Below, one piece after another: positions 39,566-55,004 of a DNA stretch of 64,000 nt. The DNA comes from Streptomyces tateyamensis. Its GTDB lineage: Bacteria > Actinomycetota > Actinomycetes > Streptomycetales > Streptomycetaceae. The DNA lies in the NCBI RefSeq assembly GCF_003205575.1, contig NZ_PYBW01000039.1, positions 49,537 to 113,536 of the forward strand, given 5' to 3'. A program made the position numbers and the translations under genes. Within the stretch, counting starts at the first letter, position 1; each line of letters starts with the position of its first letter. The notes under the pieces are model-generated. The model had not been told where the DNA came from. It ran no database searches and saw only the letters and a list, made by a program, of their open reading frames with translations.

Positions 39566-40265
39566 GGGAGTTCTTCTCCTCCTGCTGGACGGGTAGTCCA
39601 TCGAAGGTAGCAAGGACGCGCTCGTCCTCCAGCCGCATAATCCAGCGCCCCGCCGCCACAGTGTCCCTCTCCTCCGCTTCAAGGGCTTCGAAGAGGATCG
39701 ATGTCATAGCTTCGAGCTCGGCATCTGTGATCTTGATCAGGTAGAGGCAGGGCACTTCATCGAAGAAGAGCGGCAGAGCCGGGACGATCCCGTCGAGAGT
39801 GCGCCCCAGCCAGCGCAGTACGGAAGACAGCAGTCCGTGCGCGACCACCAACCTCGGTGAGGGCGACGCGGTGGTGCGCAGCAGCCCGACGAGCATCCGC
39901 CGGATCGCCTGACGCTGGGACTCGCGGGCACCGGGCGGGCATTCCCATGGGCCTTCCACCACCAGCCACCGCGCATACGCAGTGTAGGGGCCACCCTCGA
40001 ACTGTCCGTAGTCCAGTTCATCGAGGGCCGGCTCAACGTTGACGGACGTGTCTGCGCCGCCCATCAGGCGACGAGCAGTCTCGCTCGTCCGGGCGAACGA
40101 GGATACGACCCAGCCCTCCGGTTCGATGGCGCTGATGATGCCTGCACCAGTACGGCAGCTGACCTGCCCAGCCGTATCGAGCGGAAGCTCAACGGTCGGG
40201 TCACCGTTGACCCGGTGGTCGGCGCTGTACTGGGTGCTGGCATGACGTAGGAGATAGGTCGTCAT
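39558..40265 (-). CDS. histidine phosphatase (phosphoglycerate mutase-like) family protein
   Basis: A 235-residue branch-1 histidine phosphatase. The catalytic motif is YLLRHAST at residues 4-11 (RHA instead of the common RHG), the second Arg is in SSFARTSETARRL, the acid Glu in LDELDYGQFEG, and the second His in LVVAHGLLSSVL. It removes or moves phosphate on a small molecule. Its ATG overlaps the stop of the kinase gene (ATGA), so a phosphorylation/dephosphorylation pair, as in protected-intermediate or self-resistance schemes, is plausible. Confidence 0.86.
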   Translation of the reverse strand: MTTYLLRHASTQYSADHRVNGDPTVELPLDTAGQVSCRTGAGIISAIEPEGWVVSSFARTSETARRLMGGADTSVNVEPALDELDYGQFEGGPYTAYARWLVVEGPWECPPGARESQRQAIRRMLVGLLRTTASPSPRLVVAHGLLSSVLRWLGRTLDGIVPALPLFFDEVPCLYLIKITDAELEAMTSILFEALEAEERDTVAAGRWIMRLEDERVLATFDGLPVQQEEKNSHA

Positions 40266-41218
40266 GTCGTGCGCCACTCCTGGACGACGGTAAGACCGAG
40301 GTCCCCTGCCAACCCGGCGATCACATGCTCCATCACGGACACACGGTCGTCTTCCACTTCGCGGTAGTACAGGAGGCCGTCCACACACAGGGCAAGGCTC
40401 CAGCGGCGTAGCCGGCGTGGATCGAGGCCGGCGGTCCTGACGGCGATCTCGAAGCGGGCTCGGGTACCACGCCCGAGGTCGTAGTAGACGGTCCAGAAGG
40501 CCCAGTCGAAGATCTGGTCGCCGACCATCGGCAGGGGATCGGCGAGAACGGGGTTCCTCTCACGGTCGAACAGGACGTTCTCCCGGTAGATATCCGCATG
40601 GAGGACTACCGCTCCTACCGGGTCCTGGCGCAGCTGCTCGACCAGTCTCTGTCCGAGCGCCGCGCCGTCGAGGGGCGGCCGGGGGCCTTGTAGTTCCATG
40701 CGCCGCCGCACCCGGGGCAGCATCTCGTCCGCGAGGAAGTCCCCGAGGCGGGGCAGCGCGGGGTGGTGGGAGCCCGGCGCTTGGCCGAGGGCGTGCAGCC
40801 GAGCAAGGGCGTCGGCCACCACGGAGTACTCGTCCGCCCCCGGCGGCGCAGAGCCTCCAGGCTCGGTGCCGACCAGCTCCAACGCCGCGATACCTAGGTC
40901 ATCGGCCTGGTGGAGCACCCTCACGGCCGGTCCGCCGACCCAGAGCGCGAGGGCGATCACCTCGTTGCGGTACCGCTTGTCCTCCGGCCATGCCTTGAGC
41001 AGAATCGTGCGTCCGTTGCTCCGCTCATGCGTGACCATCAGCAGCGAGGCGTGGCCTGCATCGTGGTAGCGGTCCAGTATCAGCCCCCAGCGCTGCGCCG
41101 CTTTGACGAACAGCTCTGGGGCTCGGGCCAGCCAGCTGTACACTCCGGGACCATAGTGATCCCGGAGGCGGTGCCATGCACTGCGCGGGGGCACGAAGGG
41201 CTTTACCGTCGCCCGCAT
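40262..41218 (-). CDS. aminoglycoside phosphotransferase (APH)-family kinase
   Basis: A 318-residue small-molecule kinase. VLHADIYRENVLFDRER carries the catalytic HxDxxxxN motif and LADPLPMVGDQIFDWAFW the metal-binding Asp of the following loop. The layout is closest to APH(6)-type streptomycin kinases and to APH-like enzymes in biosynthesis. ATP lysine is probably in RTILLKAWPEDKR. TGATG overlap with the SAM synthetase gene couples the two. It could phosphorylate a pathway intermediate, or inactivate the product inside the producer. Length and motifs are complete. Confidence 0.86.
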   Translation of the reverse strand: MRATVKPFVPPRSAWHRLRDHYGPGVYSWLARAPELFVKAAQRWGLILDRYHDAGHASLLMVTHERSNGRTILLKAWPEDKRYRNEVIALALWVGGPAVRVLHQADDLGIAALELVGTEPGGSAPPGADEYSVVADALARLHALGQAPGSHHPALPRLGDFLADEMLPRVRRRMELQGPRPPLDGAALGQRLVEQLRQDPVGAVVLHADIYRENVLFDRERNPVLADPLPMVGDQIFDWAFWTVYYDLGRGTRARFEIAVRTAGLDPRRLRRWSLALCVDGLLYYREVEDDRVSVMEHVIAGLAGDLGLTVVQEWRTT

Positions 41219-42468
41219 CAGCTGAGCCGGACGCCGCGGTGGACCAGTTCGTCCGTCAGCTCCGGGAAGCTGCCGAGCGCCAATGCGACTTGTGCCTGCA
41301 CCTTTGCGATCTCCGGGGTCCCAGCCGCGAGCCGGACCAGCACCTTCCAGGGCTGGTCGAGACGCTGCCCGGTCGCGCTGACGAGATGGACCTCGGCGTA
41401 GCTGCCGGTCTCCTCGTACAGGCGCTGGGCCAGTCGGGTCGCGGCCAGATTGTACAGCTTCCCGACGTGGTAGACGGGGTTCTTGCCGCTTGCGCCTTCC
41501 AGGTTCATCGGGCGGAGCGGGGTGATCAGGCCGTTGACCCGGTTGCCGCGGCCGACGACCCCCTCGTCTCCCGACTCGATGGAGCTGCCGGTGTAGGTCA
41601 GATACAGCTCGTCCTTCTCCGGGACGTCACGGGCGTTGAGGAGGAAGGTGATGTCGACTCCGGGGAGGTGCTGCTCCGCGAACCTGGTGCACTCGGCCAT
41701 GACCTCCTTCGTGTTGGCGAGGTACGCGGTGCGGTCGGGTACGTGGTCGGACTTCTGCGGGACGCACAGGATTGCCTCGGCCCTGGCGCCGTCGAAATGA
41801 CCCATCAGCTTCACGTCCGAGCCGCACCACGGGTTGGCCCTGGTGAACTCGCTAATGCCGGAGAGGTGGTTGACCAGCGCATGGGAGAACGCCTCGAACG
41901 GGGCCATCGGCGCCCAGCCAGTGCCGAGCGAGGTGTCGTTGGCGAGCAGGACACGGCGCTCGCGCAGGTCATCCACCGAGCGGGGGGCGAACCAGCGAGA
42001 CCGGTCCGTGCCGCCCCCGTCGGTGACGACCGCGCCCGGACTGGGGTTGCTGGTGATGTTGAAGACTAGGTCGAGGTGGCCGGCGACCTCGGGCAGCCGC
42101 TCCTGGAAGAAGGCCAGGACGGCCTGCTCGGCCAGCTCTCGCACCGGGATGTCCTTGCCCCCGCAGGCGTAGGCCGCGCGGCCGTTGAGCAGGACCTTGA
42201 CCGGTGCAGTCATTCGGCCGGCCCCGTAGCGGACTTCACAGGAGCCACCGAGCAGCGCGAGCTTGTCGAAGTTGTGGTGAAGAACGGCGCCGAAGCGGTC
42301 GAGTGTGTAACGGCTGTAGGTGCGGGAGAGCTCCTCGGCCAGGTGATCGGCGAGGGTGTCCGGGTGACCGAGGCCCTTGCGCTCCAACAGGACGAGATCG
42401 GTAGGGCACGGGCGCCCGGTCTCGATGGTGATGCTGCTGTTCTGCACGGTGGTGCTGACGCGTTGCAT
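41218..42468 (-). CDS. archaeal-type methionine adenosyltransferase (S-adenosylmethionine synthetase)
   Basis: A 416-residue enzyme of the archaeal MAT family (Pfam AdoMet_Synthase), not the MetK family that bacteria normally use. [20 protein letters not shown] (GHPD at 34-37), [20 protein letters not shown] and [20 protein letters not shown] are the family signatures. It would make SAM, or an analogue, from methionine and ATP. GGAGG six bases before ATG 42468 is an excellent ribosome site. It is the first gene of the seven-gene leftward operon. A dedicated SAM supply suggests aminocarboxypropyl or methyl transfer in the pathway, yet no methyltransferase gene lies in the operon. Confidence 0.9.
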
Positions 42469-43419: not shown

Positions 43420-45186
43420 ATGGCTGACGAGGTCAGCGGACCGCTCGACGCGGCCTGGGTGGCGCGCAAGAAGACGAGCTACGACGAGCTCACCTTCGCT
43501 GAAGGAGCGTTGTGGTGGATCCAGTCTGATCCTGAGTCCGGGGGCGCCCGTCGGCTGGTTCGACTGGGTGACGACTTGGAACCGCGACCGCAGACGCCCG
43601 CTGACATTTCGGTCGGCGGCTGGCTGCACGCTTACGGAGGCGGGTCGTACGCCGTCGGACCTGAGAACCTATGGGTTGTCGGGGCGGAGGACAGCAAGGT
43701 CTACCGGATCGTTCCCGATGAAGTGCCACGAGCCGCTGTGCCCGATGCGGATGACTTCCGCTATGGCGATCTGCACTACTCCCAGGGCGTTCTGCTCGCC
43801 GTCCGCGGCAACGAGAGCGGCGACGAGATTGTGGAGGTTGCAGCAGATGGCAGCCAGGTCCGGGTGCTGGTCAGCTCGACGGGCTTCCTGGCAGCTCCGC
43901 GTCTGCACGGTGATGCGCTGGCCTATCTGGAGTGGGACGCAGACCGGATGCCGTGGGACTCCTCCAGGCTGCACGTTGTCCGGCGGCCTGGTAGGGGCAC
44001 GGTTGTCGCAGGCAGTGAGAATGAATCCGTGGTGCAGCCGCTCTGGGGGCCTGACGGAGCACTGTACTTCCTCTCCGATCGGACCGGCTGGTGGAATCTC
44101 TACAGCTGGGACGGCACCGTGCGGTCGGTCGCGCCGATAGAGGCGGACTGCGCACCGGCTCCCTGGGAGGCCGGCTATCAGTCGTTCGCCTTCCTGCCGG
44201 ATGGCGTGATCGTGTTGACGGTCCATGACGGCTTCCAGACCCGGCTGGTCATCCTCGGGCCTGATGGAAGTCAGGCCATGCCAGAAGCCGGCCTGACGTC
44301 CATCAAGCCATATATTGCCGCCTACGGAGGCCAGGTAGCCGTAATCGGCTCGACCCCCTTCAGCGCGCCCTCGTTGCGGTTGCTCGACCTCGCCGGAGCC
44401 GCGCAGGAGATCACCGCCGCATCAGCCGCCCACAATGCTGTCGTACGCCCGATGCTCCGTGGGGCGAAGCTGGATGATCGTGTGGTGCGCTACCTGTTCC
44501 ATCCGCCGACCGGTGGTAGCGATGACTCAGCCGCCCCACTGATTGTCAGGGCGCATCCTGGCCCGACTGATGATGTGCCGATGAGACTTGACTGGACGGT
44601 GCAGTACTTCACGAGCCGCGGCTTCGCGGTGGCTGAGGTCGCCTACCGGGGAAGCACCGGCCAGGGCCGCGCGTTCCGCCAGGCGCTTCACGGCCACTGG
44701 GGCGAGTATGACGTGGCAGACTGCGAAGCGGTCGCCGAACAACTCCTCGCCGATGGAGTCGCCCGGCCGGGAGCGGTCTTCATTACCGGTGCGAGCGCTG
44801 GCGGTTACACGGCCCTCCAAGCAGCCTGCAGAGTCGGTCCGTTCACGGCGGCTACTGCTACCTCGGCCATCGTCGACCCGGTACGTTGGACGACCACGGC
44901 CCCACGATTCCAGCGCCCGCATGCTAGGGCCCTCGCTGGTCCAGCTGGCCCCGTTCACGCGAACATGATCGCTCTGCCCGTCCTGTTGATCCATGGGACT
45001 GAGGACGGTATTGCCCCCGTAGCGGACGCGCAGCACCTCGCGGCCGGGTTGGCAGCCCGGAGGCACGACTGTGAGGCCGTGATCCTTGCTGGAGTTGGCC
45101 ACTATCTGTCCTCGTCAACCAGCTTGCAGGCGGCGCTGGAGGCGGAGTTGGGGTTCTACGAGCGCGTCATGAACGAGACAGCGTGA
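43420..45186 (+). CDS. S9 family prolyl oligopeptidase-like serine hydrolase
   Basis: A 588-residue protein. The first 370 residues form a WD/beta-propeller-like domain with repeating GxxLYF/W patterns (for example GPDGALYFLSDRTGWWNLYS). The alpha/beta hydrolase domain follows: nucleophile Ser459 in GASAGGYTA, Asp529 in HGTEDGIAP, His561 in GVGHYLS. S9C acyl-aminoacyl peptidases have this layout. It has no signal peptide and should act on small peptides or acylated compounds in the cytosol. GAGGA lies four bases before the ATG. It overlaps the convergent XRE gene by 20 bases. It might trim a peptide product of the island. Confidence 0.88.
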   Translation: MADEVSGPLDAAWVARKKTSYDELTFAEGALWWIQSDPESGGARRLVRLGDDLEPRPQTPADISVGGWLHAYGGGSYAVGPENLWVVGAEDSKVYRIVPDEVPRAAVPDADDFRYGDLHYSQGVLLAVRGNESGDEIVEVAADGSQVRVLVSSTGFLAAPRLHGDALAYLEWDADRMPWDSSRLHVVRRPGRGTVVAGSENESVVQPLWGPDGALYFLSDRTGWWNLYSWDGTVRSVAPIEADCAPAPWEAGYQSFAFLPDGVIVLTVHDGFQTRLVILGPDGSQAMPEAGLTSIKPYIAAYGGQVAVIGSTPFSAPSLRLLDLAGAAQEITAASAAHNAVVRPMLRGAKLDDRVVRYLFHPPTGGSDDSAAPLIVRAHPGPTDDVPMRLDWTVQYFTSRGFAVAEVAYRGSTGQGRAFRQALHGHWGEYDVADCEAVAEQLLADGVARPGAVFITGASAGGYTALQAACRVGPFTAATATSAIVDPVRWTTTAPRFQRPHARALAGPAGPVHANMIALPVLLIHGTEDGIAPVADAQHLAAGLAARRHDCEAVILAGVGHYLSSSTSLQAALEAELGFYERVMNETA

Positions 45187-46489
45187 TAGCGGCTGCCGGG
45201 AGGACTGCTCGCACGTACTCGTCGAGCTCGGAGACTGTCTGTCCAGCGTGGGGCTTGAGGTCAACCAGGAGCCGGGCGATGCGTTCGACGGACCGTCCGG
45301 ACGACGTACGGGCCGCGTAGCCGACTGCTGCTTTCCCGACGGCGCACGCCTGCTCGATGTCGCCCGATCGCAGCCAGGTCGAAGCGAGTAGCGCGGCATC
45401 GATCGCGAGCCGGCGAACCCGGTCGGGTCCAACTCCCTCCAGCGCATCGGCGACCTGGGTGCGAGCGGAGGGAGCCCGCCCGAGATCGTTGAGGCAATGG
45501 GCCATTTCGTCGGCTAGGTATGCCCTGGTGAAGTAGCTGATCCATGGGGGCTCTTCGCCGACTACCGAGGAGTTGAGCAGGGCTTCCGCTTGGAGCAGGA
45601 GTTCGGTGGTTTCCCTCTCGTTTCCCATGCGCGCATGCGACCTGGCACTGACAGCCGTGATTGCCGCGCGGGTCGCGGGACTCGCTGCCGTGTCGATTAC
45701 CTCGACTGCGGCTTGCGACCAACGAAGGGCTATGGAGGGATGGTTGCAGTGCAGGGCGAGGTGGCTCAGGTTCACGCCCACGAGGTATCCGCCGTAGGCG
45801 CGATCCCCTGTCCGGGCTGTCAGCTGCAGCGCCCGCCTGTAGTGAGACTGTGCCCATCCGGGGCGGCCGGAGTCCACGGCCTGGTAGCCGGCAAGCTCCA
45901 GGAAGCCGGTCGCGATCCTTGTTCGGTCGAGCTCCACCCCGGGGGCAGCGGCGGGTCGTGACAAAAGGCTGCTGAGCTCGGAATCGATGTAGCTGGAGAG
46001 ATGGGCGCCGAAGTGGCCGGGCCCGTGCGCGTGGTCTAACCGGCGAAACATGTCGAGAGTGGCCTCAGCGACCAGGACATCTTGATCAGTGACCCACAGT
46101 CCATCGCTCGATGGGAGCTCTGCGAGTACTGGTGAATCCGTCGCGACCCACCGCGTGATCAGCGACTCTGAAGCCTCTGGGACGAATCTCGCGGGCTGAA
46201 GCCGCTCTTTCCGAGGAGACGTGGCTCGCCGTCGCTCCTCCTCAGCGGCGACCCACAACTCCAACAAGCTCCCGTCTGCCTCCAACACCCGGTCGCACGC
46301 CTCAATGAGCTGACGGTTTGGGAACCTCTCCGTCGCCTCAACCCGACGGATTAGATCACCGCTGCAGTGGACCGCTGCACCCAACCGCGCCTGGCTGAGC
46401 CCCTTCCGGCTCCGCAACTCGCGAAGCGCAGCTCCAAGTCGCGCTTGCGCCGATCCCTCCGCCACGATCTCCCGGGCTTTCGCCGACAC
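45167..46489 (-). CDS. XRE-family regulator with TPR-like domain and a TTA codon
   Basis: A 440-residue protein. Residues 15-75 form a Cro/CI-type HTH (LGAALRELRSRKGLSQARLG, then CSGDLIRRVEATERFPN). The rest is helical and TPR-like (for example SHYRRALQLTARTGDRAYGG), as in streptomycete NsdA-type and quorum-peptide-like regulators. GTG at 46489 has GAGGGG five bases upstream. Codon 151 is TTA (46039-46037), so full-length synthesis should depend on the bldA tRNA. It is the only DNA-binding regulator inside the island besides the HTH protein and is a candidate switch for it. Confidence 0.85.
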   Translation of the reverse strand: MSAKAREIVAEGSAQARLGAALRELRSRKGLSQARLGAAVHCSGDLIRRVEATERFPNRQLIEACDRVLEADGSLLELWVAAEEERRRATSPRKERLQPARFVPEASESLITRWVATDSPVLAELPSSDGLWVTDQDVLVAEATLDMFRRLDHAHGPGHFGAHLSSYIDSELSSLLSRPAAAPGVELDRTRIATGFLELAGYQAVDSGRPGWAQSHYRRALQLTARTGDRAYGGYLVGVNLSHLALHCNHPSIALRWSQAAVEVIDTAASPATRAAITAVSARSHARMGNERETTELLLQAEALLNSSVVGEEPPWISYFTRAYLADEMAHCLNDLGRAPSARTQVADALEGVGPDRVRRLAIDAALLASTWLRSGDIEQACAVGKAAVGYAARTSSGRSVERIARLLVDLKPHAGQTVSELDEYVRAVLPAAAITLSRS

Positions 46490-46657
46490 ATTGCCCCCTC
46501 GCTGGCCGCGGCCCGCTACCGCGCCTCGCGGATGCGTGACTGTCACGATAACGGCCTTGTAGGCTCTGTGTATCCGGAACTACACGGATGGTGACGGCGT
46601 GAAGAGTGGACGAGCAGTGGTTCGGCTTGTCGTCCTAGGCGCTCAGAGCGGCTCTGC

Positions 46658-47947
46658 CTAACTGATCTTTGCCCGGTGTTGCGTGAACAGATCGTGCCGC
46701 TGGTGGCCGTCCTGGCCGATGAACGCCTTGAACTCACCCAGAAGATAGGCGATGGCGCCGTTGGAGCGTTCGGTCATGGTCATCTCGAAATCACGGTTGA
46801 GGTGGTTCAGGTGGCGCTCGACCTCGGGCTGCTCCATGACGGTGCCGGTCTTGGCCAGCTTGGCGATCATCTGGTCCACCGTGAGCGGGCGGGTGTTGCC
46901 GCGGAGCAGACGGTAGACGGGGTCCTGGACCGCGGCCGTTGCTTCAGGGAGAACGCGCGGTTCGCCGGTCTTGCCCAGAGCCTTCTTGATAGCTTCCCCG
47001 AGTGCCCTGGCTACCGGCGGGGGAAAGGCGTTGCCGATCTGGCGGTAGACCGTCGTCTTGCGGCCCTTGAATTCCCACTTGAAATCGTCGTCGTCCCAGC
47101 CCTGGATACGCGCGACCATTTCAGTGGTGAGCTTGGGGTGCCCATCGACCGGGAAGTCCGGACCCGGTGCCTCATTGGCTACGCCCATGGCGTCGACGCC
47201 GAGGTCCTTCCAGGCCCGCTTGGCGCGGGTCGGGCCGAGGTCGGCCCCGCCGTGCTTCTTGGAGCCGCCGACAATGGTCGGTGCAATGTCGTTGGCCGTG
47301 AGTACCCACTGCTCCGTGGGCCAGCCGTTCTGGCCCATGAGGTCCTTGAGGAGCTCGCCCACTGTGGGAGGCTTCGTCGCGTTCGGCTCCGGCCAGGAGA
47401 AGTAAGGGGCAAATTCGCGCTGGAGTGCAACGAGTACGAACCGGGGACGCAGCTGCGAGACACCAAAATCGTTGGCCTGCAGCAGCTTCCACTCGCCCAC
47501 GTAGCCGTACTCGTGCAGCTGGTCGAGGACGTGCTGACGATAGGCGGAGAAGCGATTGGCGCTGAGGCCGCGCACGTTCTCCAGTAGCAGTGCCTTCGGC
47601 TTGACGATGCCGCAGGTTTCTACCGCCCACGCGAAGAGGTCGCGTTCATCGTTCGCGCCGAGCTGCTTTCCTGCAATGCTGAACGGCGGACACGGAACAC
47701 CCCCTGCCAACAGGTCTACGCCCTTGTGGTCGGAAGGATTCCAGACGCTCAGGTCCGCGACATCACCGACTCGGACAACCTCGTCGCCGTTGGGAAGGTT
47801 GTGTCGCAGGGTGTTCGCCGCGTTGGCATCCAGCTCGACCGCCAGCCGGTGGTGGAAGCCCGCGCGTCCGAGCCCGAGCGACTGTCCGCCCGCGCCGGCA
47901 CAGATCTCGACGACCTCGAACCGCTCATCGGGCTCGGTTGTCGGCAT
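46658..47947 (-). CDS. NaeI-type DNA (cytosine-5) methyltransferase
   Basis: A 429-residue C5 methyltransferase. Motif I is VVEICAGAGGQSLGLGRAGF, motif IV GGVPCPPFS with nucleophile Cys86, motif VI ENVRG, motif VIII QLRPR, and motif X RQIGNAFPPPVA. Its sequence follows M.NaeI closely, to the C-terminal QRHDLF and HRAKIS, as I remember it, so the predicted site is GCCGGC. It protects host DNA from the adjacent NaeI-like nuclease. GAGGGAGA precedes the ATG at 47947. A separate palindrome upstream may control it. Confidence 0.93.
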   Translation of the reverse strand: MPTTEPDERFEVVEICAGAGGQSLGLGRAGFHHRLAVELDANAANTLRHNLPNGDEVVRVGDVADLSVWNPSDHKGVDLLAGGVPCPPFSIAGKQLGANDERDLFAWAVETCGIVKPKALLLENVRGLSANRFSAYRQHVLDQLHEYGYVGEWKLLQANDFGVSQLRPRFVLVALQREFAPYFSWPEPNATKPPTVGELLKDLMGQNGWPTEQWVLTANDIAPTIVGGSKKHGGADLGPTRAKRAWKDLGVDAMGVANEAPGPDFPVDGHPKLTTEMVARIQGWDDDDFKWEFKGRKTTVYRQIGNAFPPPVARALGEAIKKALGKTGEPRVLPEATAAVQDPVYRLLRGNTRPLTVDQMIAKLAKTGTVMEQPEVERHLNHLNRDFEMTMTERSNGAIAYLLGEFKAFIGQDGHQRHDLFTQHRAKIS

Positions 47948-48056
47948 GTGATCTCCCTCTAGCGGCGCCTGGCGAGCCAGCGCAAGGGGACAGGCGTTGC
48001 CGCCCGGCCCCACGAACTTAACGAGCATCCAACTACACCTGGCACTGGGGAAGCAC

Positions 48057-48072
48057 GATACCCGCGGGTATC
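48057..48072. promoter_or_regulatory. perfect 16-bp palindrome upstream of the methyltransferase gene
   Basis: GATACCCGCGGGTATC is a perfect palindrome about 110 bases upstream of the methyltransferase ATG, in the 256-bp gap before the Vsr gene's end. It could be an operator for methyltransferase expression, or part of a terminator for the leftward Vsr gene. No controller-protein gene is visible nearby. Confidence 0.45.
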
Positions 48073-48203
48073 TCAGAGCGATGCTGACCAGCGTGGCGAC
48101 CTGGATCCGACTGTGAAGTCTACGGGGCCCCGCTGACAGCGCCGGCCGCGCCTCGGCCCAGGCCCCGGTCGGCAAGGCTGCTGACCTGAACGGGGTTCGT
48201 CGG

Positions 48204-48752
48204 TTAGTCGCTGTCCGGGTGCGCAGGGCTGCTGGTCAGCGGCACTTTTGCGCGCCGCGCGCTGTTCGCGGCCTTGCCATCAGTCAGTGCCTTCCGGCGC
48301 TCGCTTACTGCGGTGACCGTCGCGACCGCGCACTCCTTCGGGTCCTGATGCTCCCAGAATCTCAGCACTAGCCACCCTTCCGCTGCCAGCCGGGCATCGG
48401 TGTCCCGGTCCCGCTGGATGTTCCCGCCGATCTTGGTCTCCCAGTAATCCGGGTTTGTCTTTGGTGGTACGAAGTGGTCCGGGCAGCCGTGCCAGAAACA
48501 CCCATCGATGAAGACCGCTACTCGCACAGGACGGAACACGAGGTCAGCAGTTCGGCGCATCTTCGGCAGTGGCTTGACCGCAACGCGGTAGCGCAGCCCG
48601 GCGGCATGGACGAGTGAGCGCAGCGCCAGCTCGGGGGAGGTGTCCCGGCTTCGATTGCCGAGCATGCTCTTCCGGTTTGCGGCTGAGGATGCCCACGACC
48701 CGTCTGGCGCTACCCAGGCGGGGTTGGTCTTTTGAGAGTCAGACATGCTCAT
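48204..48752 (-). CDS. vsr: very short patch repair (Vsr) endonuclease
   Basis: A 182-residue Vsr homologue. NRSRDTSPELALRSLVHAAG begins the domain, followed by ADLVFRPVRVAVFIDGCFWHGC (catalytic Asp and the zinc-linked Cys/His residues), CPDHFVPPKTNPDYWETKI and FWEHQDP. Vsr nicks the T:G mismatch that arises when methylated cytosine deaminates. That suits partnership with the C5 methyltransferase. ATG at 48752 overlaps the NaeI-type gene's stop (ATGA). The N-terminal 30 residues before the domain are polar and probably flexible. Confidence 0.92.
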   Translation of the reverse strand: MSMSDSQKTNPAWVAPDGSWASSAANRKSMLGNRSRDTSPELALRSLVHAAGLRYRVAVKPLPKMRRTADLVFRPVRVAVFIDGCFWHGCPDHFVPPKTNPDYWETKIGGNIQRDRDTDARLAAEGWLVLRFWEHQDPKECAVATVTAVSERRKALTDGKAANSARRAKVPLTSSPAHPDSD

Positions 48753-49702
48753 ATTCCCGGCAGATTCGGTGCGAGTTCCTCGGGATCTTCCGGCAACGCC
48801 AGTGTCCAGCGAACACCGTCGAGGTCGACCCACGGCACCTCTCCATGGTCTGCCCTCAAGCGGGTGAGGCGGGCGCTGAGGGACTCCCCAGCCTGAGGGA
48901 CGGCCAGACCGAGACGCTGTGCTACCTCCCCATGGCTTGAATAGTCGCCCAGGATGACAATGCCGCGTGGCCGAAGACGGGTGCGTGAACTGCCGCCTCC
49001 ACGGACTCGCCTCATGTAGTCCTCCTGCATGGCGACGGTGGCCACGACGCTACGGCTGACCAGTCGGCGCTGTGCTCGGAGGAACAGCTCGTCCAGACGA
49101 CGCTGCCCGCCCTTGTGGCTGAAGATCGCGGTGATGTCCTCGGGCGGCAGCCGCAGCAACACGTTGTCCTGCAGTGGCGCGTCCTTGAAAAGGCAGCGCA
49201 CCGAGTTCTTGCCAGCCGCATTGAGCGTGCGCTTCCCGTCGCGATTGCCACCAGGGTTCAACAGCTCCGGGCGGGCACGGACCAGCCCAGCACACCACTT
49301 CGCCTCGCTACCGCTCGCCCAGACTACGAGCAGCAGCTCGCCGTGCGCCTCCGGCGGGACCATCCAGGAGCCGCGCTTCTGCGAGACCTTGCAGTCCACG
49401 TCGACGCCAGCGATCTGGTAGTCCATTCGCTCTCCGTCGGCAAAGGCGAACTCCCGCTGGAGGTTGATCTCGATGAGGGTTCCGAGGTGGATCTTCTCTG
49501 TCTTGTACAGCTGGTCCCACCGGAATCGGCCGGTGTGCTGGCCGTCCAGGAGCATGTCGATACTCCGCCGGATGGTGCCTGCGAAGCGGCGTCCGGCAGG
49601 GTCCTCGTCCAAAATCTTCCTGGCCACCGCGTCCAGCTGTGAGTCGTGTTCCGTCCACGCGGCCCAGAGCTGCGACTGCTCAGCCTCGGCTCCGTGGTCC
49701 AC
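48749..49702 (-). CDS. NaeI-family type II restriction endonuclease
   Basis: A 317-residue protein, the same length as NaeI. The catalytic residues of NaeI (Glu70, Asp86, Asp95, Lys97) have counterparts at Glu78, Asp94, Asp103 and Lys105 in LIEIN, ERMDYQIAG and VDVDCK, all with a constant offset of eight. The DNA-binding half shows NELFLRAQ-type blocks (DELFLRAQRRLVSRSVVATV), then DYMRRVRG and RPRGIVILGD. NaeI needs two GCCGGC copies to cut. GTG at 49702 is the only standard start upstream that gives this length; acidic sequence before it is also in frame, so the start is uncertain. Confidence 0.9.
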   Translation of the reverse strand: MDHGAEAEQSQLWAAWTEHDSQLDAVARKILDEDPAGRRFAGTIRRSIDMLLDGQHTGRFRWDQLYKTEKIHLGTLIEINLQREFAFADGERMDYQIAGVDVDCKVSQKRGSWMVPPEAHGELLLVVWASGSEAKWCAGLVRARPELLNPGGNRDGKRTLNAAGKNSVRCLFKDAPLQDNVLLRLPPEDITAIFSHKGGQRRLDELFLRAQRRLVSRSVVATVAMQEDYMRRVRGGGSSRTRLRPRGIVILGDYSSHGEVAQRLGLAVPQAGESLSARLTRLRADHGEVPWVDLDGVRWTLALPEDPEELAPNLPGI

Positions 49703-49766
49703 GGAATCCAGGGTATCGGCGCTGCTGTCCGACCAGGAGACGTCGACTGTCTCCTGCGGGCCGGGG

Positions 49767-51605
49767 TCAGACGTGGGCAGCTCCTCGCCCGAGGTAGCCC
49801 AAAAGCGCCCGGATATCGGCCATGTCCATACCCCCGGCCACCGACGGCTCCTCGACCAGGTCAGCGAGCTGCTGGACGGAAGGATCGTCGAGGATGCGGC
49901 CCATGAACTCGAGCTTCTCCTCAAGGCGGAGGGCCACTACCTCGTCCACTGTGCCCGAGGCGGCCAGGACGGTGACCCTGGTCTCCGCGTCTGGGTCGAG
50001 GCCGAGACGGTGAATGCGGTCCAGGCTCTGCAGGAACCGCCCGGCCATGAAATCCCGGTCCACGTATACGGCGTCATGGCAGACATGGTGCAGGCTGATG
50101 CCCTCGCCGAGGGTGGCGGGGTTGGAGAGCAGCACCATGCAGTCAGGATCCTCGCGGAAGCGCCGCAGCTGCTCCTCCCGGTCCTTGCTCCCGCCGTGCA
50201 CCACTGCTGGCTGATAGCTAGTCAGAAGTCCTTCCAGGGTGGTCAGGCTGCGCACGAACGTGGTCCACACCAGGGTCTTCCTCCCCGCAGCCGCGTTCTC
50301 AGCCACGATGCTGAGCGTCTCCTGGTATTTCGGGGACAGCTCATAGCTGGGGAGGTTCTGCAGCAGCGAGAACAGCGAGTCGGTCGGCAGTGCCTCCAAC
50401 GGCGGGACCTGGTAGGCGAGCGGCTCGTACCGGCTGCTGCCCTCTACCAGCAGCGCGGGGCTGGTAGCCGCCATCAGCAGGCGTAGCAGTGCCTTTCCGA
50501 GCGAGTCGAAGTCCCCGCGTGAGCCCTCCGCCCGGGCGGAGTACCGGCCTACCAGGGCGTCGTAGATCTCCCGGTGGAGCGGGGGCATCTCGACGTAGCG
50601 AATCCGCGGTTCGAAGGGGGGAAGCCCGAGCTCGTGCTTGGTCGTGCGAGTGAACAGCGGCTTCAGCACCGCGCTCGCATAGGCCAGATCGCCGCCGGCC
50701 ACGGCGTCGTTGACTACTCGCCGCCCGCGCCCGGGCCATACGAACGAGAGCAGGCTCTCGAGGTCGCGAGCCCCGTTCGGGGCCGGCGTCCCGGTGAGGA
50801 TCAGGCGGCGCCGACTCAGCGGGCCAAGTGCCAGACAGGCCGAGCCGTAGGTACCGCGCGCACCGAGCTTCATCCTGTGCGCCTCGTCGAGAATGAGCAT
50901 GGAGGGGGAAGAGCGCAGCCAGTCAGCCAGGGCGGTCAGTGACCGGTCCAGCCGCTCGTAGTTGACGATCAATATCTCTGCACCTGGGTCCGGCGCGCCA
51001 TCCAGGACCTGGACGCGCAGCGGCTCCTCAAAGCACTCGGTGCTTTCGTGCTGCCACGACTCGTAGGCCGATTTGGGGCTCACAACCAGGGCTTTGCGGG
51101 CCTCGCCGCGCTTACGGGCGGCGGAGTAGACGGCCAGAGCCACCCGGGTTTTCCCGGCGCCGGGCACGCTGAAGTTAGCGCCGTGCCCGAGAGATAGCAG
51201 CCGGGCGATGTCGCGCCGTTGAAAGGAAGTCAGATCGGCGATCCAACCTGCATCGAGCAGCGATGCGACCTCGTCAGGGCTGACCTGTCCGGCCGCTGCA
51301 GCGCCCTCGCTGTCAGTCAGCTGGAGCTCCGCCGACTCGGCATCGTCGAGTACACCGTTGACGAGGTCGAGCAGAGTCTCCTCCCACTCGACGTCCTCAG
51401 GCGCCGGCCACTCGCCGAGTTCGTTGATGCCGACCAGGAAGTCGTCCAGGTCGACTTCAGCGGACAGCGGGCCCCGCGGGCTCCCGGCCGCGAATCGGGC
51501 TGCGAGCCTTGCCAGATCAGCCTGGAATGCCGAGGCCGCGCGAAGCACGACACGGGTCCGCGTCACATCGAAGGCAAGCCGAAGAGAGGGTTCAGCGGTG
51601 GTCAT
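49767..51605 (-). CDS. SNF2-like DEAD/DEAH-box helicase
   Basis: A 612-residue superfamily 2 ATPase. Walker A FSVPGAGKTRVAL, motif II ILDEAH, motif III LILTGTPAPNGARDLESLL and the C-terminal helicase half (VWTTFVRSLTTLEGLL, VVHGGSKDREEQL, LSNPATLGEGISLH, QSLDRIHRLG) are complete. The first 115 residues, acidic and helical, are specific to this protein. It probably moves along or remodels DNA, not as a canonical type I HsdR since the nuclease domain is missing. Its ATG overlaps the ParB-like gene's stop (TGATG), so both make one unit with the NaeI cassette downstream. Confidence 0.9.
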   Translation of the reverse strand: MTTAEPSLRLAFDVTRTRVVLRAASAFQADLARLAARFAAGSPRGPLSAEVDLDDFLVGINELGEWPAPEDVEWEETLLDLVNGVLDDAESAELQLTDSEGAAAAGQVSPDEVASLLDAGWIADLTSFQRRDIARLLSLGHGANFSVPGAGKTRVALAVYSAARKRGEARKALVVSPKSAYESWQHESTECFEEPLRVQVLDGAPDPGAEILIVNYERLDRSLTALADWLRSSPSMLILDEAHRMKLGARGTYGSACLALGPLSRRRLILTGTPAPNGARDLESLLSFVWPGRGRRVVNDAVAGGDLAYASAVLKPLFTRTTKHELGLPPFEPRIRYVEMPPLHREIYDALVGRYSARAEGSRGDFDSLGKALLRLLMAATSPALLVEGSSRYEPLAYQVPPLEALPTDSLFSLLQNLPSYELSPKYQETLSIVAENAAAGRKTLVWTTFVRSLTTLEGLLTSYQPAVVHGGSKDREEQLRRFREDPDCMVLLSNPATLGEGISLHHVCHDAVYVDRDFMAGRFLQSLDRIHRLGLDPDAETRVTVLAASGTVDEVVALRLEEKLEFMGRILDDPSVQQLADLVEEPSVAGGMDMADIRALLGYLGRGAAHV

Positions 51606-53020
51606 CAGGCCTTCTCTGCAGCAGCGTCAAGGAGCCACGAGACCCCGTCGCCGGGCACCTTGATGCTGCGCGCTGACTCAAGGGCGAGCTTGCCGAGCAT
51701 GGCGCGCAGGCTCTGGACGGCTTCGTCGTACGCCTCTTCGTCGAGGCTGTTCGACGCCCTGGCCATGACCAGGTCCGTGATGCACTGTTCGAGATCCTGA
51801 CAGGCATCCGTGATGCGGTCTGGGGCTGCCTGGCGGCGCTTGCGGACCCGGGCGTCCTTGCCGGCGAACTCGAGCGAGCTTGAGAAGGCGTCCCTGGCTT
51901 CGGCAATGGTCCGGGAGGCTTCAGCAAGCTGGGGGGCCGGCACCTTGTCGCCTGCGGTCTCCACTGCCAGAGCCTTGAGGACTGTGTCGGTAAGCGCCTT
52001 CGCCACAGCCACCCCGGCGCCAGCAGCCTTGACCGAGCGGTTCAACCCGGGGATCGCGACCGTCGCCGGGGCCGCAGTCGGCGCAGGCTTCAGCGAATCA
52101 GGCAGGAGGCGGTCAAGGTAGCGGGCGTGGAAGTCCGGCTCAATGAGCCGGACGTCCGTCTTCGAGTACCCCAGTGCGATGGCGGCGAGCCGGCTTTCCT
52201 TGAGCAGGTCGGCCTTCTCCTTACTGACTGCTGAATCCTTGAGGTACCGGCGGTGCAGCTCGCGGAGCTTCTCCTGAGCCTCCTCGAAGTCCAGCAGTCG
52301 GAGCTGAGCATCGCCCGTGCTGCTTCGTGCGATCAGGTCGCGCAGGCACGACAGGATCCAGACGTCCTGCTCGGCGGTCTCCTTCCGGACGTGGAACTCG
52401 CGTGCGATGTCGGGCAGAAGGCGGCCGGCCGACACCTGCTCATCGATGGCGATCAGACGGTTGATGTAGGAGTAATCGCGCCGGTGGTCCTTGCGCAGCT
52501 GCAGTGACAGCTCGACAGTACTGATATCCGCCCAGGTACACGACTCAGGCAGGACGCCCACCCGGATGCTGGGGACACCCAGATCCTTGAGGGCAGCACG
52601 CCTCGTGTTTCCGTTGACCAGGATTCCGTCACGGGTAATCAGGCCGGGGTCGGTCTGCTTGAATTCCCGCAGACTTTCCATGAGCGCGTCGAAATCTTTG
52701 TCGCGCAATGCAGGGTCCTTGGGGAGGGCCCGGAGCAGGAAATGCAGATAGTCCTGGCTATCGTCGCTCCAGGGGTCCTCATCGAGGGCCCGGTCGCGAG
52801 CTGGCTCATGGCTGCGCTGCGCGCGGATCCGGTGTGTTCCCGGATTGAAATAAAGGTCGTTGACCGGCATGTCGATGACCTCGACATGCAGCGGCTTGCC
52901 GCGCCACTCGATGGTCAGCGTCTCTTTGATGCCGGTGCCTTCGCGGACTTCTCTGAGCCGCTCCTCCACAAGTGCCCGGTTGCTCGCAGCAAGCGGTGGC
53001 GCACCGAAGTCCGTCCTCAT
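51605..53020 (-). CDS. ParB/Srx-like N-terminal domain protein
   Basis: A 471-residue protein. Residues 90-150 contain a ParB-like core (LREFKQTDPGLITRDGILVN, then GNTRRAALKDLGV), including the GNTRR nucleotide/DNA contact. A helix-turn-helix-like segment (DIAREFHVRKETAEQDVWIL) follows, then a long helical C-terminus with coiled coil. ParB-fold proteins bind DNA with CTP, or act as Srx-like nucleases or regulators in mobile defence modules. ATG at 53020 has GGAGGG four to five bases upstream, better than the TTG at 53032. It is coupled to the SNF2-like gene. Confidence 0.82.
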   Translation of the reverse strand: MRTDFGAPPLAASNRALVEERLREVREGTGIKETLTIEWRGKPLHVEVIDMPVNDLYFNPGTHRIRAQRSHEPARDRALDEDPWSDDSQDYLHFLLRALPKDPALRDKDFDALMESLREFKQTDPGLITRDGILVNGNTRRAALKDLGVPSIRVGVLPESCTWADISTVELSLQLRKDHRRDYSYINRLIAIDEQVSAGRLLPDIAREFHVRKETAEQDVWILSCLRDLIARSSTGDAQLRLLDFEEAQEKLRELHRRYLKDSAVSKEKADLLKESRLAAIALGYSKTDVRLIEPDFHARYLDRLLPDSLKPAPTAAPATVAIPGLNRSVKAAGAGVAVAKALTDTVLKALAVETAGDKVPAPQLAEASRTIAEARDAFSSSLEFAGKDARVRKRRQAAPDRITDACQDLEQCITDLVMARASNSLDEEAYDEAVQSLRAMLGKLALESARSIKVPGDGVSWLLDAAAEKA

Positions 53021-53127
53021 GGATCCCTCCAAAATCGTCAGTCCAGCTCTTGATCGGTGCGGTGGGGCGGCGGACCGCTCCTACAGCGGGCCGCCACCGT
53101 ACCGCGTGCATGTGCGAGAGCCTGGGC

Positions 53128-53802
53128 TTAACCCAGTGCGGCCTTGACCTGTTCCCGGGAGTCCGCCGGCAGCGAGCGGAATGCGGCCCACAGGTGTTCC
53201 AGCTCGCTGAAGTCCCGAGCGTCCTGCGCGACCCAGCCGGCCAGGATCCCGCGCTCGAAGCCCGAGAGCTGTTTGATCTGGCCGAGCACCCCTGCGAGAT
53301 CAGCAGTCAGGCCGCGCCCACCCACGCGGCAGCGGTTGCACTCGATGACCAGTTGCAGCTCGGTCGTCCCGTCAGGCAACTGGACGTCGCGCCGCGCGAT
53401 GTCCAGCTGAGCGGCTTCGAAGGTGCCGGCGTAGGTCTGGCCCGGCGTGATCCCGCACGAGCGGCACATGTGGCTGTCCCGTGCCAGCAACTCGCGCCGC
53501 TGGGTAGCTGTGACCACCGTGCCGGTCTTCTTGCTGGCCTTGCCGGGTTCCCACACGGGCTGACCCGCCTCCACGAACCGCTGTTCGTGCGCGCCGAGGC
53601 TCAGGTCCTCCCGGTTCGTGTCGATCCGCCAGCCGAAGTCGCGCAGGTCACGCATACGGCGGTCGATCTGCGCGACCTCCGGAAAGGCATCTCGGAGCTG
53701 AGCCTTCGTGAACAGGTTCCCCTCTCCGACGACCTGGACCAGCCACAGGGCAGCCCGCTTCATCGTGCCGTACTTCTCGTCTTCCCAGGACGGCTGCTCC
53801 AT
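53128..53802 (-). CDS. HNH-like endonuclease (putative)
   Basis: A 224-residue protein. The N-terminal 75 residues resemble a winged-helix DNA-binding unit (TKAQLRDAFPEVAQIDRRMR). Residues 108-165 hold a CxxC...CxxC pair (HMCRSCGITPG and VIECNRCRVGGRG) around an HNH/zinc-ribbon-like core, as in small HNH nucleases or in zinc-binding DNA proteins. The conserved central His is not obvious to me. It is the first gene of the leftward defence block, 107 bases upstream of the ParB-like gene. Nuclease activity is inference. Confidence 0.65.
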   Translation of the reverse strand: MEQPSWEDEKYGTMKRAALWLVQVVGEGNLFTKAQLRDAFPEVAQIDRRMRDLRDFGWRIDTNREDLSLGAHEQRFVEAGQPVWEPGKASKKTGTVVTATQRRELLARDSHMCRSCGITPGQTYAGTFEAAQLDIARRDVQLPDGTTELQLVIECNRCRVGGRGLTADLAGVLGQIKQLSGFERGILAGWVAQDARDFSELEHLWAAFRSLPADSREQVKAALG

Positions 53803-54026
53803 GTGCGCACCCCAATGCGTGTCGGTCTGTCAGAGAACTCAGCCTTGCCCGTGGAACCAGGCCGAGGCGACTGCGAGCAGGTCCATTTGACCTGGTCGGC
53901 GACGGCAATTGGAAGGGGATGCGGATCTTTCGCCTACCTTGTGAATACCGAGAGCTTCACGGGCGCTGTGCTTTGGATCAGACTCGACCTTGCAACCGTG
54001 TGTTCAGTGAAGACGAGGAGTCGCGC

Positions 54027-54824
54027 TTGCCAGCGCCAGGTCAGATCAGGGCAGGGATCGACCCCGATGCTTCACCGGCCCACCGAGAGTTCGCCCGAAG
54101 GCTGAGGCAGCTGTGCCAGCTGATCACCGAGGGCAGCTCGGGGCCGAGCAGTCAGAAGGCAATCTGCGAAGCCTTCGAGGCACGTGGAAAGATCGGTGGT
54201 GTCTCCCAATCGACGCTGACCAGCCAGCTGGGTGCTAGACGAAGGCCGGACCTGTACGTGGCGCGGGAGCTCCATGCACTTGCTTCCGAGGTGGTAGAGG
54301 CAGACCCGGGCAGCCCCGCTGTCCCTATCACGCTTGCAGAGCTGGAAGCCCTCCACGCCAGTGCAGTGATCAAGCACTGTGACTGCTGCGAATTCGGCGC
54401 CCACGTGCCGCCTGTCGGTGTGGCGCAACATGCGGCAAGGCCAGTGGCAACGGAGGCAGAGTCGCCGGCCCTGACTCGCTCTCAGGAGTTGCCGGTCCCC
54501 CCGCCAGAGGGGGACCGGCAACATATCGGGGCAACTGCCCGCGCATGGCCGCCGCAGAGTTACCTCGAGCAGCACCTTCGTGCCGGCCGGACCGAGGACG
54601 CTCGGGTGATCCTCCGTTACGCCGGCGCCGCGTCAGCTCTCGTTGATGTTGTGGACGCGATCGCAGCTTGTCGGGCGGGAGAACTCGATGACGCCGCTGA
54701 CACGATCTTGTATCACGCCGGCCGGCGTGATCCGAAGGATGTCCTCGGCATTGTGCGACTGTTCATCGAGCAGAGTCGACATGCCGACCTGGGCATTCTC
54801 CTGAGTGCGACTGAGCACGGGTAG
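54027..54824 (+). CDS. unknown protein with an N-terminal HTH-like segment
   Basis: A 265-residue protein, soluble, without signal peptide. Residues 20-75 could form an HTH (EFARRLRQLCQLITEGSSGP, then KAICEAFEARGKIGGVSQS). A linker and a helical C-terminal domain (ILRYAGAASALVDVVDAIAA and DPKDVLGIVRLFIEQS) follow. I chose TTG at 54027 because GAGGAG lies six bases before it; GTG at 54000 and ATG at 53919 are alternatives. It runs opposite to the defence block and ends against two terminator hairpins. I do not recognise the family. A regulator of the defence genes is a guess from position. Confidence 0.6.
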   Translation: MPAPGQIRAGIDPDASPAHREFARRLRQLCQLITEGSSGPSSQKAICEAFEARGKIGGVSQSTLTSQLGARRRPDLYVARELHALASEVVEADPGSPAVPITLAELEALHASAVIKHCDCCEFGAHVPPVGVAQHAARPVATEAESPALTRSQELPVPPPEGDRQHIGATARAWPPQSYLEQHLRAGRTEDARVILRYAGAASALVDVVDAIAACRAGELDDAADTILYHAGRRDPKDVLGIVRLFIEQSRHADLGILLSATEHG

Positions 54825-54914: not shown

Positions 54915-55004
54915 TGGCGGTAGCGGTGGGATTCGAACCCACGGTGAAGTTGCCCCCACACACGCTTTCGAGGCGTGCTCCTTTGGCCGCTCGGACACGC
55001 TACC
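54915..55004 (-). tRNA. tRNA-Ser (CGA)
   Basis: A 90-base class II tRNA with encoded CCA. Acceptor GGTAGCG pairs with CGCTACC; the T-arm carries GGTTCGAATCC; the anticodon stem CACGC/GCGTG encloses CTCGAAA with anticodon CGA (54970-54968), reading UCG. The long variable arm is typical of tRNA-Ser. Its 3' end faces the accessory block on the left, the usual side for integration into a tRNA gene. No second copy of the 3' end was seen to the left. Confidence 0.95.

What the first reader, a model, noticed from the sequence alone, without database searches (positions are those of the whole stretch)
46658..53802. NaeI-type restriction system extended by helicase, ParB-like and HNH-like proteins
A six-gene leftward block, largely coupled, links a NaeI nuclease and methyltransferase, a Vsr enzyme, an SNF2-like ATPase, a ParB-fold protein and an HNH-like protein. 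A simple type II system needs none of the last three. The SNF2/ParB/HNH genes might be an extra defence layer or help NaeI loop DNA to bring two GCCGGC sites together.
Basis: partly seen in the sequence, partly recalled or inferred. Interest (0 to 1): 0.6.

Follow-up and report, generated by a model that had tools for sequence, protein, structure and literature searches.

The report
Portable ParB–SNF2 add-on to restriction systems
Next to a NaeI-type restriction system in an actinobacterium sits a three-gene set (a ParB-fold protein, an SNF2-type DNA motor and a dead HNH-like protein) that recurs as a unit beside restriction systems with many different cutting enzymes, so it looks like an undescribed plug-in to restriction rather than a helper of NaeI alone.

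Summary
The block is real: C5 methyltransferase, Vsr, NaeI, SNF2 ATPase, ParB-fold and HNH-like proteins. It recurs far beyond this locus. In 56 distinct loci anchored on the ParB-like gene, HNH-like and SNF2 genes accompany it in 56, Vsr in 54, a C5 methyltransferase in 53. NaeI does not define it: 20 loci carry NaeI, 6 a distant NaeI, 5 NgoMIV (2 with NaeI), 13 a NOV_C/DUF3883 nuclease, 14 none recognised. NOV_C never coexists with the others, and nuclease class changes at least 13 times on the ParB+SNF2 tree. NaeI often lacks the triad (53 of 70 matches). The HNH-like protein lacks the catalytic His in all 63 rows examined: a pseudo-nuclease. Homologous ParB–SNF2 pairs lie beside C5-methyltransferase or type III systems on proteobacterial and Bacillota plasmids. 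PADLOC has no model for the ParB or HNH parts; my paper searches found no description. Most likely function, inferred: an ATP-driven restriction accessory with swappable nuclease, working like the ATPase subunit of CglI. The "looping helper of NaeI" idea is not supported. No function was tested.

The parts
46658..47947 (-). C5 cytosine DNA methyltransferase (about 429 aa; the ORF is open to 48175)
   Evidence: PF00145 203 bits; PADLOC models PDLC00032 and PDLC03304 over 600 bits; start ATG with GAGGGAG upstream
48204..48752 (-). Vsr endonuclease (very short patch repair type)
   Evidence: PF03852, TIGR00632 over cut-off; ATGA overlap with the NaeI stop
48749..49702 (-). NaeI-family type II restriction endonuclease (ORF open to 49924)
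   Evidence: PF09126 361 bits; 1ev7 E 4e-82 with active-site positions kept
49767..51605 (-). SNF2-type SF2 ATPase/DNA motor; motifs GAGKT, DEAH, LTGTP, QSLDRIHR present
   Evidence: PF00176; motif check; 12-member alignment A3
51605..53020 (-). ParB-fold protein: N-terminal ParB domain with invariant NGNTR box, helical middle, long helical C-terminus
   Evidence: alignment A2, model, Foldseek to Noc/KorB/Spo0J; stop/start overlap with SNF2
53128..53802 (-). Pseudo-HNH protein: N-terminal helical region (winged helix inferred) plus four invariant Cys, catalytic His lost
   Evidence: alignment A1, 63 rows, model
53919..54824 (+). Divergent upstream ORF, homologue upstream of the triad in 46 of 56 loci; regulator role inferred
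   Evidence: no Pfam hit; conserved position
54915..55004 (-). tRNA-Ser(CGA), at the edge of the low-GC segment
   Evidence: ARAGORN; GC profile

Best explanation
The locus is a type II restriction-modification system of NaeI type (C5 methyltransferase + Vsr + NaeI) joined to a separate, portable accessory module of three genes: pseudo-HNH, ParB-fold protein, SNF2 motor. Shown by comparison: the module is inherited as a unit, sits almost always beside a C5 methyltransferase and Vsr, and swaps its nuclease partner (NaeI, distant NaeI, NgoMIV, NOV_C, apparently none); its ParB+SNF2 core recurs with R-M genes in three phyla. Inferred: the SNF2 protein is an ATP-driven double-strand DNA motor loaded or held on DNA by the ParB-fold protein (which may bind a nucleotide), the pseudo-HNH protein is a DNA- or protein-binding adaptor, and the complex makes restriction of unmethylated incoming DNA depend on, or be amplified by, ATP-driven movement, recruiting whichever nuclease is encoded next to it. 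Host methylation marks self; Vsr repairs the T:G mismatches that 5-methylcytosine produces.
For: 56 of 56 ParB-anchored loci have SNF2 and pseudo-HNH, 54 Vsr, 53 C5 methyltransferase, while Vsr occurs in only 177 of 297 genomes. ParB-SNF2 distances correlate at r 0.90 and HNH with either at 0.72-0.74, against 0.13-0.37 for triad members with methyltransferase or Vsr. Nuclease class changes at least 13 times on the ParB+SNF2 tree; the nearest relative of the window (L002) has a different nuclease class. NOV_C: 13 loci, 0 with another recognised REase (Fisher p 1e-5, not corrected for relatedness), always abutting or overlapping SNF2. ParB-SNF2-DUF3883 on alphaproteobacterial plasmids, 3 of 4 opened with a C5 methyltransferase; ParB-SNF2 with C5 methyltransferase + MutH/Sau3AI nuclease or type III Mod-Res in Bacillota. 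Partner helicases of the two other phyla score 166-470 bits against the SNF2 profile, next-best SNF2 proteins of the own genome 27 bits. Precedent for an SF2 ATPase that a C5-methyltransferase system needs for cleavage: CglI/NgoAVII (PMC4267653, abstract and passages).
Against: No activity, complex or phage phenotype was tested. 12 triad loci have methyltransferase and Vsr but no recognised restriction nuclease, and 2 have the triad alone. 4 of 10 opened Bacillota plasmid records show the pair without listed R-M genes. NaeI (recalled) cuts without ATP, and NaeI+methyltransferase+Vsr occur without the triad in 21 of 40 fetched loci, so NaeI cannot need the module. The recalled ParB CTPase motif ENxQR is not evident.
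Confidence: 0.5

Rival explanations
1. Stand-alone defence or plasmid-maintenance unit: ParB+SNF2(+pseudo-HNH, +NOV_C) works by itself and only shares islands with R-M genes.
For: Triad without methyltransferase, Vsr or nuclease in L013 and L119; pairs without listed R-M genes in Enterococcus and Exiguobacterium plasmids and in Kozakia, with only DUF3883.
Against: Vsr in 54 and C5 methyltransferase in 53 of 56 loci; NOV_C never together with NaeI/NgoMIV suggests the nucleases replace each other.
Confidence: 0.2
2. Housekeeping partner of C5 methylation: the triad with Vsr repairs or tolerates mismatches, nicks and breaks at 5-methylcytosine sites, or alleviates self-restriction.
For: Vsr and methyltransferase are the most constant partners, and 12 loci have triad+methyltransferase+Vsr with no recognised nuclease; MutL-like MORC ATPases accompany 13 of 56 loci.
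Against: Triad phylogeny correlates poorly with Vsr (r 0.13-0.24); 21 fetched NaeI loci with methyltransferase and Vsr lack the triad; type III Mod-Res contexts in Bacillota.
Confidence: 0.17
3. Regulatory module: the ParB-fold and pseudo-HNH proteins control expression of the R-M genes.
For: ParB fold nearest Noc/KorB; zinc-ligand Cys kept without catalytic His.
Against: Does not explain a motif-complete SNF2 ATPase or the NOV_C nuclease in the same slot.
Confidence: 0.08
4. One reading: the triad helps NaeI bring two GCCGGC sites together.
For: NaeI-family gene in 26 of 56 triad loci.
Against: 30 of 56 triad loci have no NaeI-family gene; 53 of 70 NaeI matches lack the triad; NaeI is recalled to bind two sites by itself.
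Confidence: 0.05

Closest known systems
CglI / NgoAVII ATP-dependent restriction systems (PMC4267653: abstract and passages read; PMC5737866: start of the abstract in the search listing)
   Same: C5 methyltransferase with a separate nuclease and a separate SF2 ATPase
   Different: CglI has a PLD/B3 nuclease and a Z1-domain ATPase; here NaeI, an SNF2 ATPase, a ParB-fold protein and a pseudo-HNH; no Z1 match among the window genes scanned, though Z1 is near 14 of 56 relatives
MORC/paraMORC restriction operons (PMC2292703, passages read)
   Same: Described groups include SWI2/SNF2 ATPases with HNH or EcoRII-like nucleases, C5 methylases and Vsr
   Different: Defined by a GHKL ATPase, none found among the window genes scanned; no ParB mention in that paper (0 occurrences)
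NaeI type II restriction-modification
   Same: NaeI with kept active site, C5 methyltransferase
   Different: Three extra genes that NaeI loci often lack
ParB/Noc/KorB DNA-clamp proteins
   Same: Fold of the N-terminal and middle part
   Different: No ParA in the block, Pfam ParB_N not matched, box reads NGNTR, recalled ENxQR not evident
DISARM, Zorya and Dpd SNF2 proteins (PADLOC)
   Same: SNF2 ATPase in defence
   Different: Only weak profile matches (best 59.5 bits, ZorD) and no other signature gene of those systems among the eight proteins scanned

Membership tests
Type II R-M, NaeI type | NaeI-family endonuclease with intact active site | tested here: met
   PF09126 361 bits, alignment to 1ev7
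Type II R-M, NaeI type | C5 methyltransferase | tested here: met
   PF00145 203 bits
Type II R-M, NaeI type | GCCGGC methylated and cut | not testable with these tools
   No methylome; GCCGGC is not depleted in the window (172 sites, against 42-174 for the eight all-GC six-base palindromes counted)
CglI-type ATP-dependent R-M | PLD/B3 nuclease | tested here: not met
   The window nuclease is NaeI
CglI-type ATP-dependent R-M | ATPase with Z1 domain | tested here: not met
   The window ATPase matches SNF2, not Z1
MORC/paraMORC R-M | GHKL (MORC-like) ATPase in the operon | tested here: not met
   None among the six block genes and two flanking genes; present in 13 of 56 relatives
ParB partition proteins | ParB fold | tested here: met
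   Foldseek best E 2e-4 to Noc
ParB partition proteins | ParA partner and recognised ParB_N domain | tested here: not met
   No ParB_N in the protein, no ParA among the eight proteins scanned
ParB CTPase clamp | CTP binding and hydrolysis motifs | tested here: inconclusive
   NGNTR box kept, ENxQR (recalled) not evident
HNH nuclease | Catalytic His | tested here: not met
   Arg or Lys at that column in all 63 triad rows; His kept in the 5 HNH2 paralogues
DISARM | DrmA/DrmB/DrmC genes | tested here: not met
   The eight proteins at the locus gave only generic helicase overlap with Drm models
Vsr | Passes the TIGR00632 cut-off | tested here: met
   122.3 against 97.85 bits

The most novel reading that the evidence does not exclude
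The ParB-fold protein and SNF2 motor form an undescribed, cross-phylum plug-in that turns quite different restriction systems (type II C5 systems with NaeI, NgoMIV, MutH/Sau3AI or NOV_C nucleases, and type III Mod-Res) into ATP- and possibly NTP-clamp-driven restriction machines; in actinobacteria a pseudo-HNH protein serves as adaptor between motor and swappable nuclease.
Probability: 0.35. Interest if true: 0.8.

Novelty: new variant of a known kind. Interest (0 to 1): 0.6.

Why it matters
Type II restriction is taught as needing only a methylase and a nuclease. A conserved ParB+SNF2 unit that travels between type II and type III systems in three phyla and keeps changing its nuclease would be a general accessory layer of restriction that PADLOC's models do not name. 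It gives a testable question: does ATP-driven movement, with a ParB-like clamp, control when these nucleases cut? NaeI, being well studied biochemically, is a convenient partner to test it with.

Tried and rejected
Considered and rejected: (1) a one-off cluster by chance: refuted by the survey. (2) An HNH nuclease as third cutter: the catalytic His column is lost in all 63 rows. Foldseek with the HNH model gave no significant match (best E 0.31, CBASS Cap5; pTM 0.45), so its fold stays unproven. (3) DISARM, Zorya, Dpd or BREX membership: only generic SNF2 overlap. (4) A restriction nuclease hidden in the 'none' class: ten ORFs near such loci scanned; one Uma2 nuclease-like ORF near Vsr in L108 and one weak EVE domain in L113, none recurrent; unresolved. 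(6) An integration-site repeat of the tRNA-Ser region: no repeat of 16 bp or more elsewhere in the window. (7) Profile-profile match of the ParB alignment to the genome's own chromosomal ParB: not significant (E 0.065); the ParB claim rests on structure. (8) Hits of the ParB profile to PDB sequences by HMMER: only spurious-looking matches to the helical C-terminal part.

Selection and limits: all 56 loci were found through the ParB-like gene, so 56 of 56 says that SNF2 and pseudo-HNH follow ParB, not the reverse. Loci are related to each other; Fisher p and correlations are uncorrected. 8 of 64 rows were dropped as duplicates (identical ParB). Of 53 NaeI matches without the triad, 40 were fetched. 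Of 71 plasmid records hit by the L172 ParB, 10 Bacillota neighbourhoods were read, including L172 itself; of the 6 records hit by the window ParB, 5 were opened; one further Paracoccus record had no annotation. PLSDB gene tables are incomplete. A phylum-wide sample found the ParB family in only 3 of 396 genomes, all of the window's own family, so in Actinomycetota it is concentrated there, with Nocardia, Crossiella, Nonomuraea and Actinomadura examples. Literature: ten answered searches; opened by passages only: PMC2292703, PMC8011034, PMC3710099, PMC12839542, PMC10853773, PMC10952713, PMC12458937, PMC11090510, PMC3459991, PMC4267653, PMC3874151; most subscription papers are not in the library.
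Full report
WHAT IS THERE. In transcription order: pseudo-HNH (53802-53128), ParB-like (53020-51605), SNF2 (51605-49767), NaeI (about 49702-48749), Vsr (about 48752-48204), C5 methyltransferase (47947-46658). ParB-like/SNF2 overlap at stop/start and NaeI/Vsr share an ATGA. Pfam and NCBIfam confirm the methyltransferase, Vsr, NaeI and SNF2. NaeI matches the solved enzyme over 300 residues, and positions known (from recall) as catalytic are kept. SNF2 keeps motifs GAGKT, DEAH, LTGTP and QSLDRIHR. The block sits in a lower-GC segment (about 64-68% between roughly 35 and 55 kb, against 70-79% for most of the rest of the window) that ends at a tRNA-Ser, as islands do; no attachment repeat of 16 bp or more was found in the window.

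THE PARB-LIKE AND HNH-LIKE PROTEINS. The ParB-like protein has no Pfam match, but its AlphaFold model (24 sequences, pLDDT 86, pTM 0.74) matches ParB-family DNA clamps: Noc E 2e-4, also KorB and Spo0J. All 24 sequences keep an NGNTR box, and the alphaproteobacterial relatives keep NGN.R; the CTPase motif ENxQR known from recall is not evident, so nucleotide use is open. The HNH-like protein has four invariant cysteines. Sister loci L008 and L010-L012 carry beside the triad a 35-39% identical paralogue with an intact HNH motif (in L010 PF01844 17.9 bits, below cut-off). Aligned with these and one more (5 HNH2 rows), all 63 triad proteins have Arg or Lys where the paralogues have the catalytic His. 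It is therefore most likely a pseudo-nuclease; its own fold model is weak (pTM 0.45; no significant PDB match).

THE TRIAD IS A UNIT, AND NaeI IS NOT PART OF IT. One genome scan with the ParB-like protein gave 23 loci; a search of 297 genomes of the window's family gave the ParB family in 40 and NaeI in 64. All 40 further ParB loci were fetched. Removing 8 duplicates left 56 distinct loci including the window. HNH-like and SNF2 genes were found in 56 of 56, Vsr in 54, C5 methyltransferase in 53, the divergent upstream ORF in 46, Z1 helicase in 14, MORC ATPase in 13. Recognised nucleases: NaeI 20, distant NaeI 6, NgoMIV 5 (2 with NaeI), NOV_C/DUF3883 13, none 14. Vsr occurs in only 177 of 297 genomes, mostly one copy each, so I estimate the chance of one within a 20 kb stretch at a few per thousand. 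NOV_C never occurs with the other nucleases (0 of 13; Fisher p 1e-5, not corrected for relatedness) and always abuts or overlaps the SNF2 3' end, the slot NaeI has in the window. On a tree of ParB+SNF2 the nuclease class changes at least 13 times; the window's nearest relative L002 (80% identical) has a distant NaeI plus Z1 and MORC. Tree distances of ParB and SNF2 correlate at 0.90, HNH with either at 0.72-0.74, but triad members with methyltransferase or Vsr only at 0.13-0.37; triad with NaeI gave 0.65-0.70 over 190 pairs, so where NaeI is present it may have travelled with the triad for some time.

THE REVERSE VIEW. Of 70 NaeI-family matches in the 297 genomes, 17 lie within 5 kb of the ParB family and 53 do not (one of the 53, in G123, is in a genome that has both 1.3 Mb apart). 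Of 40 of those 53 fetched, 21 have a strong methyltransferase and Vsr beside NaeI without any triad, 6 of them with Z1+MORC. NaeI thus does not need the triad, nor the triad NaeI.

BEYOND ACTINOBACTERIA. Homologous ParB-SNF2 pairs occur on plasmids of Azospirillum, Rhizobium, Kozakia and Mesorhizobium, all followed by a DUF3883 (NOV_C) gene, 3 of 4 with a C5 methyltransferase in the stretch read and two of these with Vsr too; in place of the pseudo-HNH stands another gene, in Rhizobium matching a PADLOC type II REase model (67 bits). In Bacillota: methyltransferase-ParB-SNF2-MutH/Sau3AI-Vsr in Lactiplantibacillus, methyltransferase-ParB-SNF2-MutH/Sau3AI in Priestia, type III Mod-Res-ParB-helicase with overlapping genes in Lactococcus and Enterococcus faecium, a methyltransferase gene in another Lactiplantibacillus, type I genes next door in E. 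lactis; no listed R-M genes in E. casseliflavus, E. faecalis and two Exiguobacterium records. All 14 partner helicases compared score 166-903 bits with the actinobacterial SNF2 profile, while the next SNF2 proteins of the window's own genome score 27. ParB matches in Bacillota are weaker (23-44 bits) but are backed by the adjacent helicase.

HOW IT MOST LIKELY WORKS. Shown: modular association, nuclease exchange, SNF2 motifs intact, ParB fold, dead HNH motif. Inferred: an ATP-driven DNA motor with a ParB-fold DNA holder and a pseudo-nuclease adaptor that feeds or triggers an adjacent, exchangeable nuclease on DNA lacking the host's methyl mark. The nearest precedent is CglI/NgoAVII, where a C5-methyltransferase system needs a separate SF2 ATPase for cleavage (PMC4267653, abstract and passages); Iyer et al. 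2008 (PMC2292703, passages) already described SWI2/SNF2, HNH, Vsr and C5 methylase groupings around MORC ATPases. Membership in either fails on defining features, so the claim is 'works like', not 'is a'. PADLOC had no specific model for the ParB-like or pseudo-HNH proteins, and none of the passages read in the papers opened describes the combination.

VERDICT. Observation confirmed; interpretation half right. The link with restriction is real and far wider than suspected; the link with NaeI in particular, and the looping idea, are not supported.

Noticed in passing
window 41218-42468 (-): AdoMet synthetase of the PF01941 family (298 bits), which I recall as the archaeal type, beside an APH_6_hur kinase-like gene (40262-41218) and a histidine phosphatase (39558-40313).
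   Followed up: partly
window 38273-39682 (-), 33372-36005 (+), 31622-33352 (+): ORFs that look by eye like seryl-, valyl- and prolyl-tRNA synthetases near the low-GC segment, with a glycosyltransferase-like ORF at 37253-38272; possibly a small biosynthetic cluster with a resistance paralogue (no family search done).
   Followed up: no
L008, L010, L011, L012: Next to the triad a second methyltransferase and a second HNH protein with intact motif; an intact copy and a degenerate copy side by side.
   Followed up: partly
L105, L107-L117: Twelve triad loci with C5 methyltransferase and Vsr but no recognised restriction nuclease; ten ORFs near such loci scanned without a recurrent nuclease.
   Followed up: partly
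L175, L176 (Enterococcus plasmids): A roughly 860-aa protein annotated as sigma factor-like HTH stands directly before the ParB-helicase pair; 52 of 71 plasmid records hit by the L172 ParB are Enterococcus.
   Followed up: partly
L019, L024, L125, L129, L132, L133, L139: NaeI and NgoMIV family enzymes, recalled to cut the same GCCGGC site, are encoded in the same locus.
   Followed up: no
window 45167-46546 (-): NsdA-family regulator (218 bits against cut-off 75) directly downstream of the methyltransferase.
   Followed up: no
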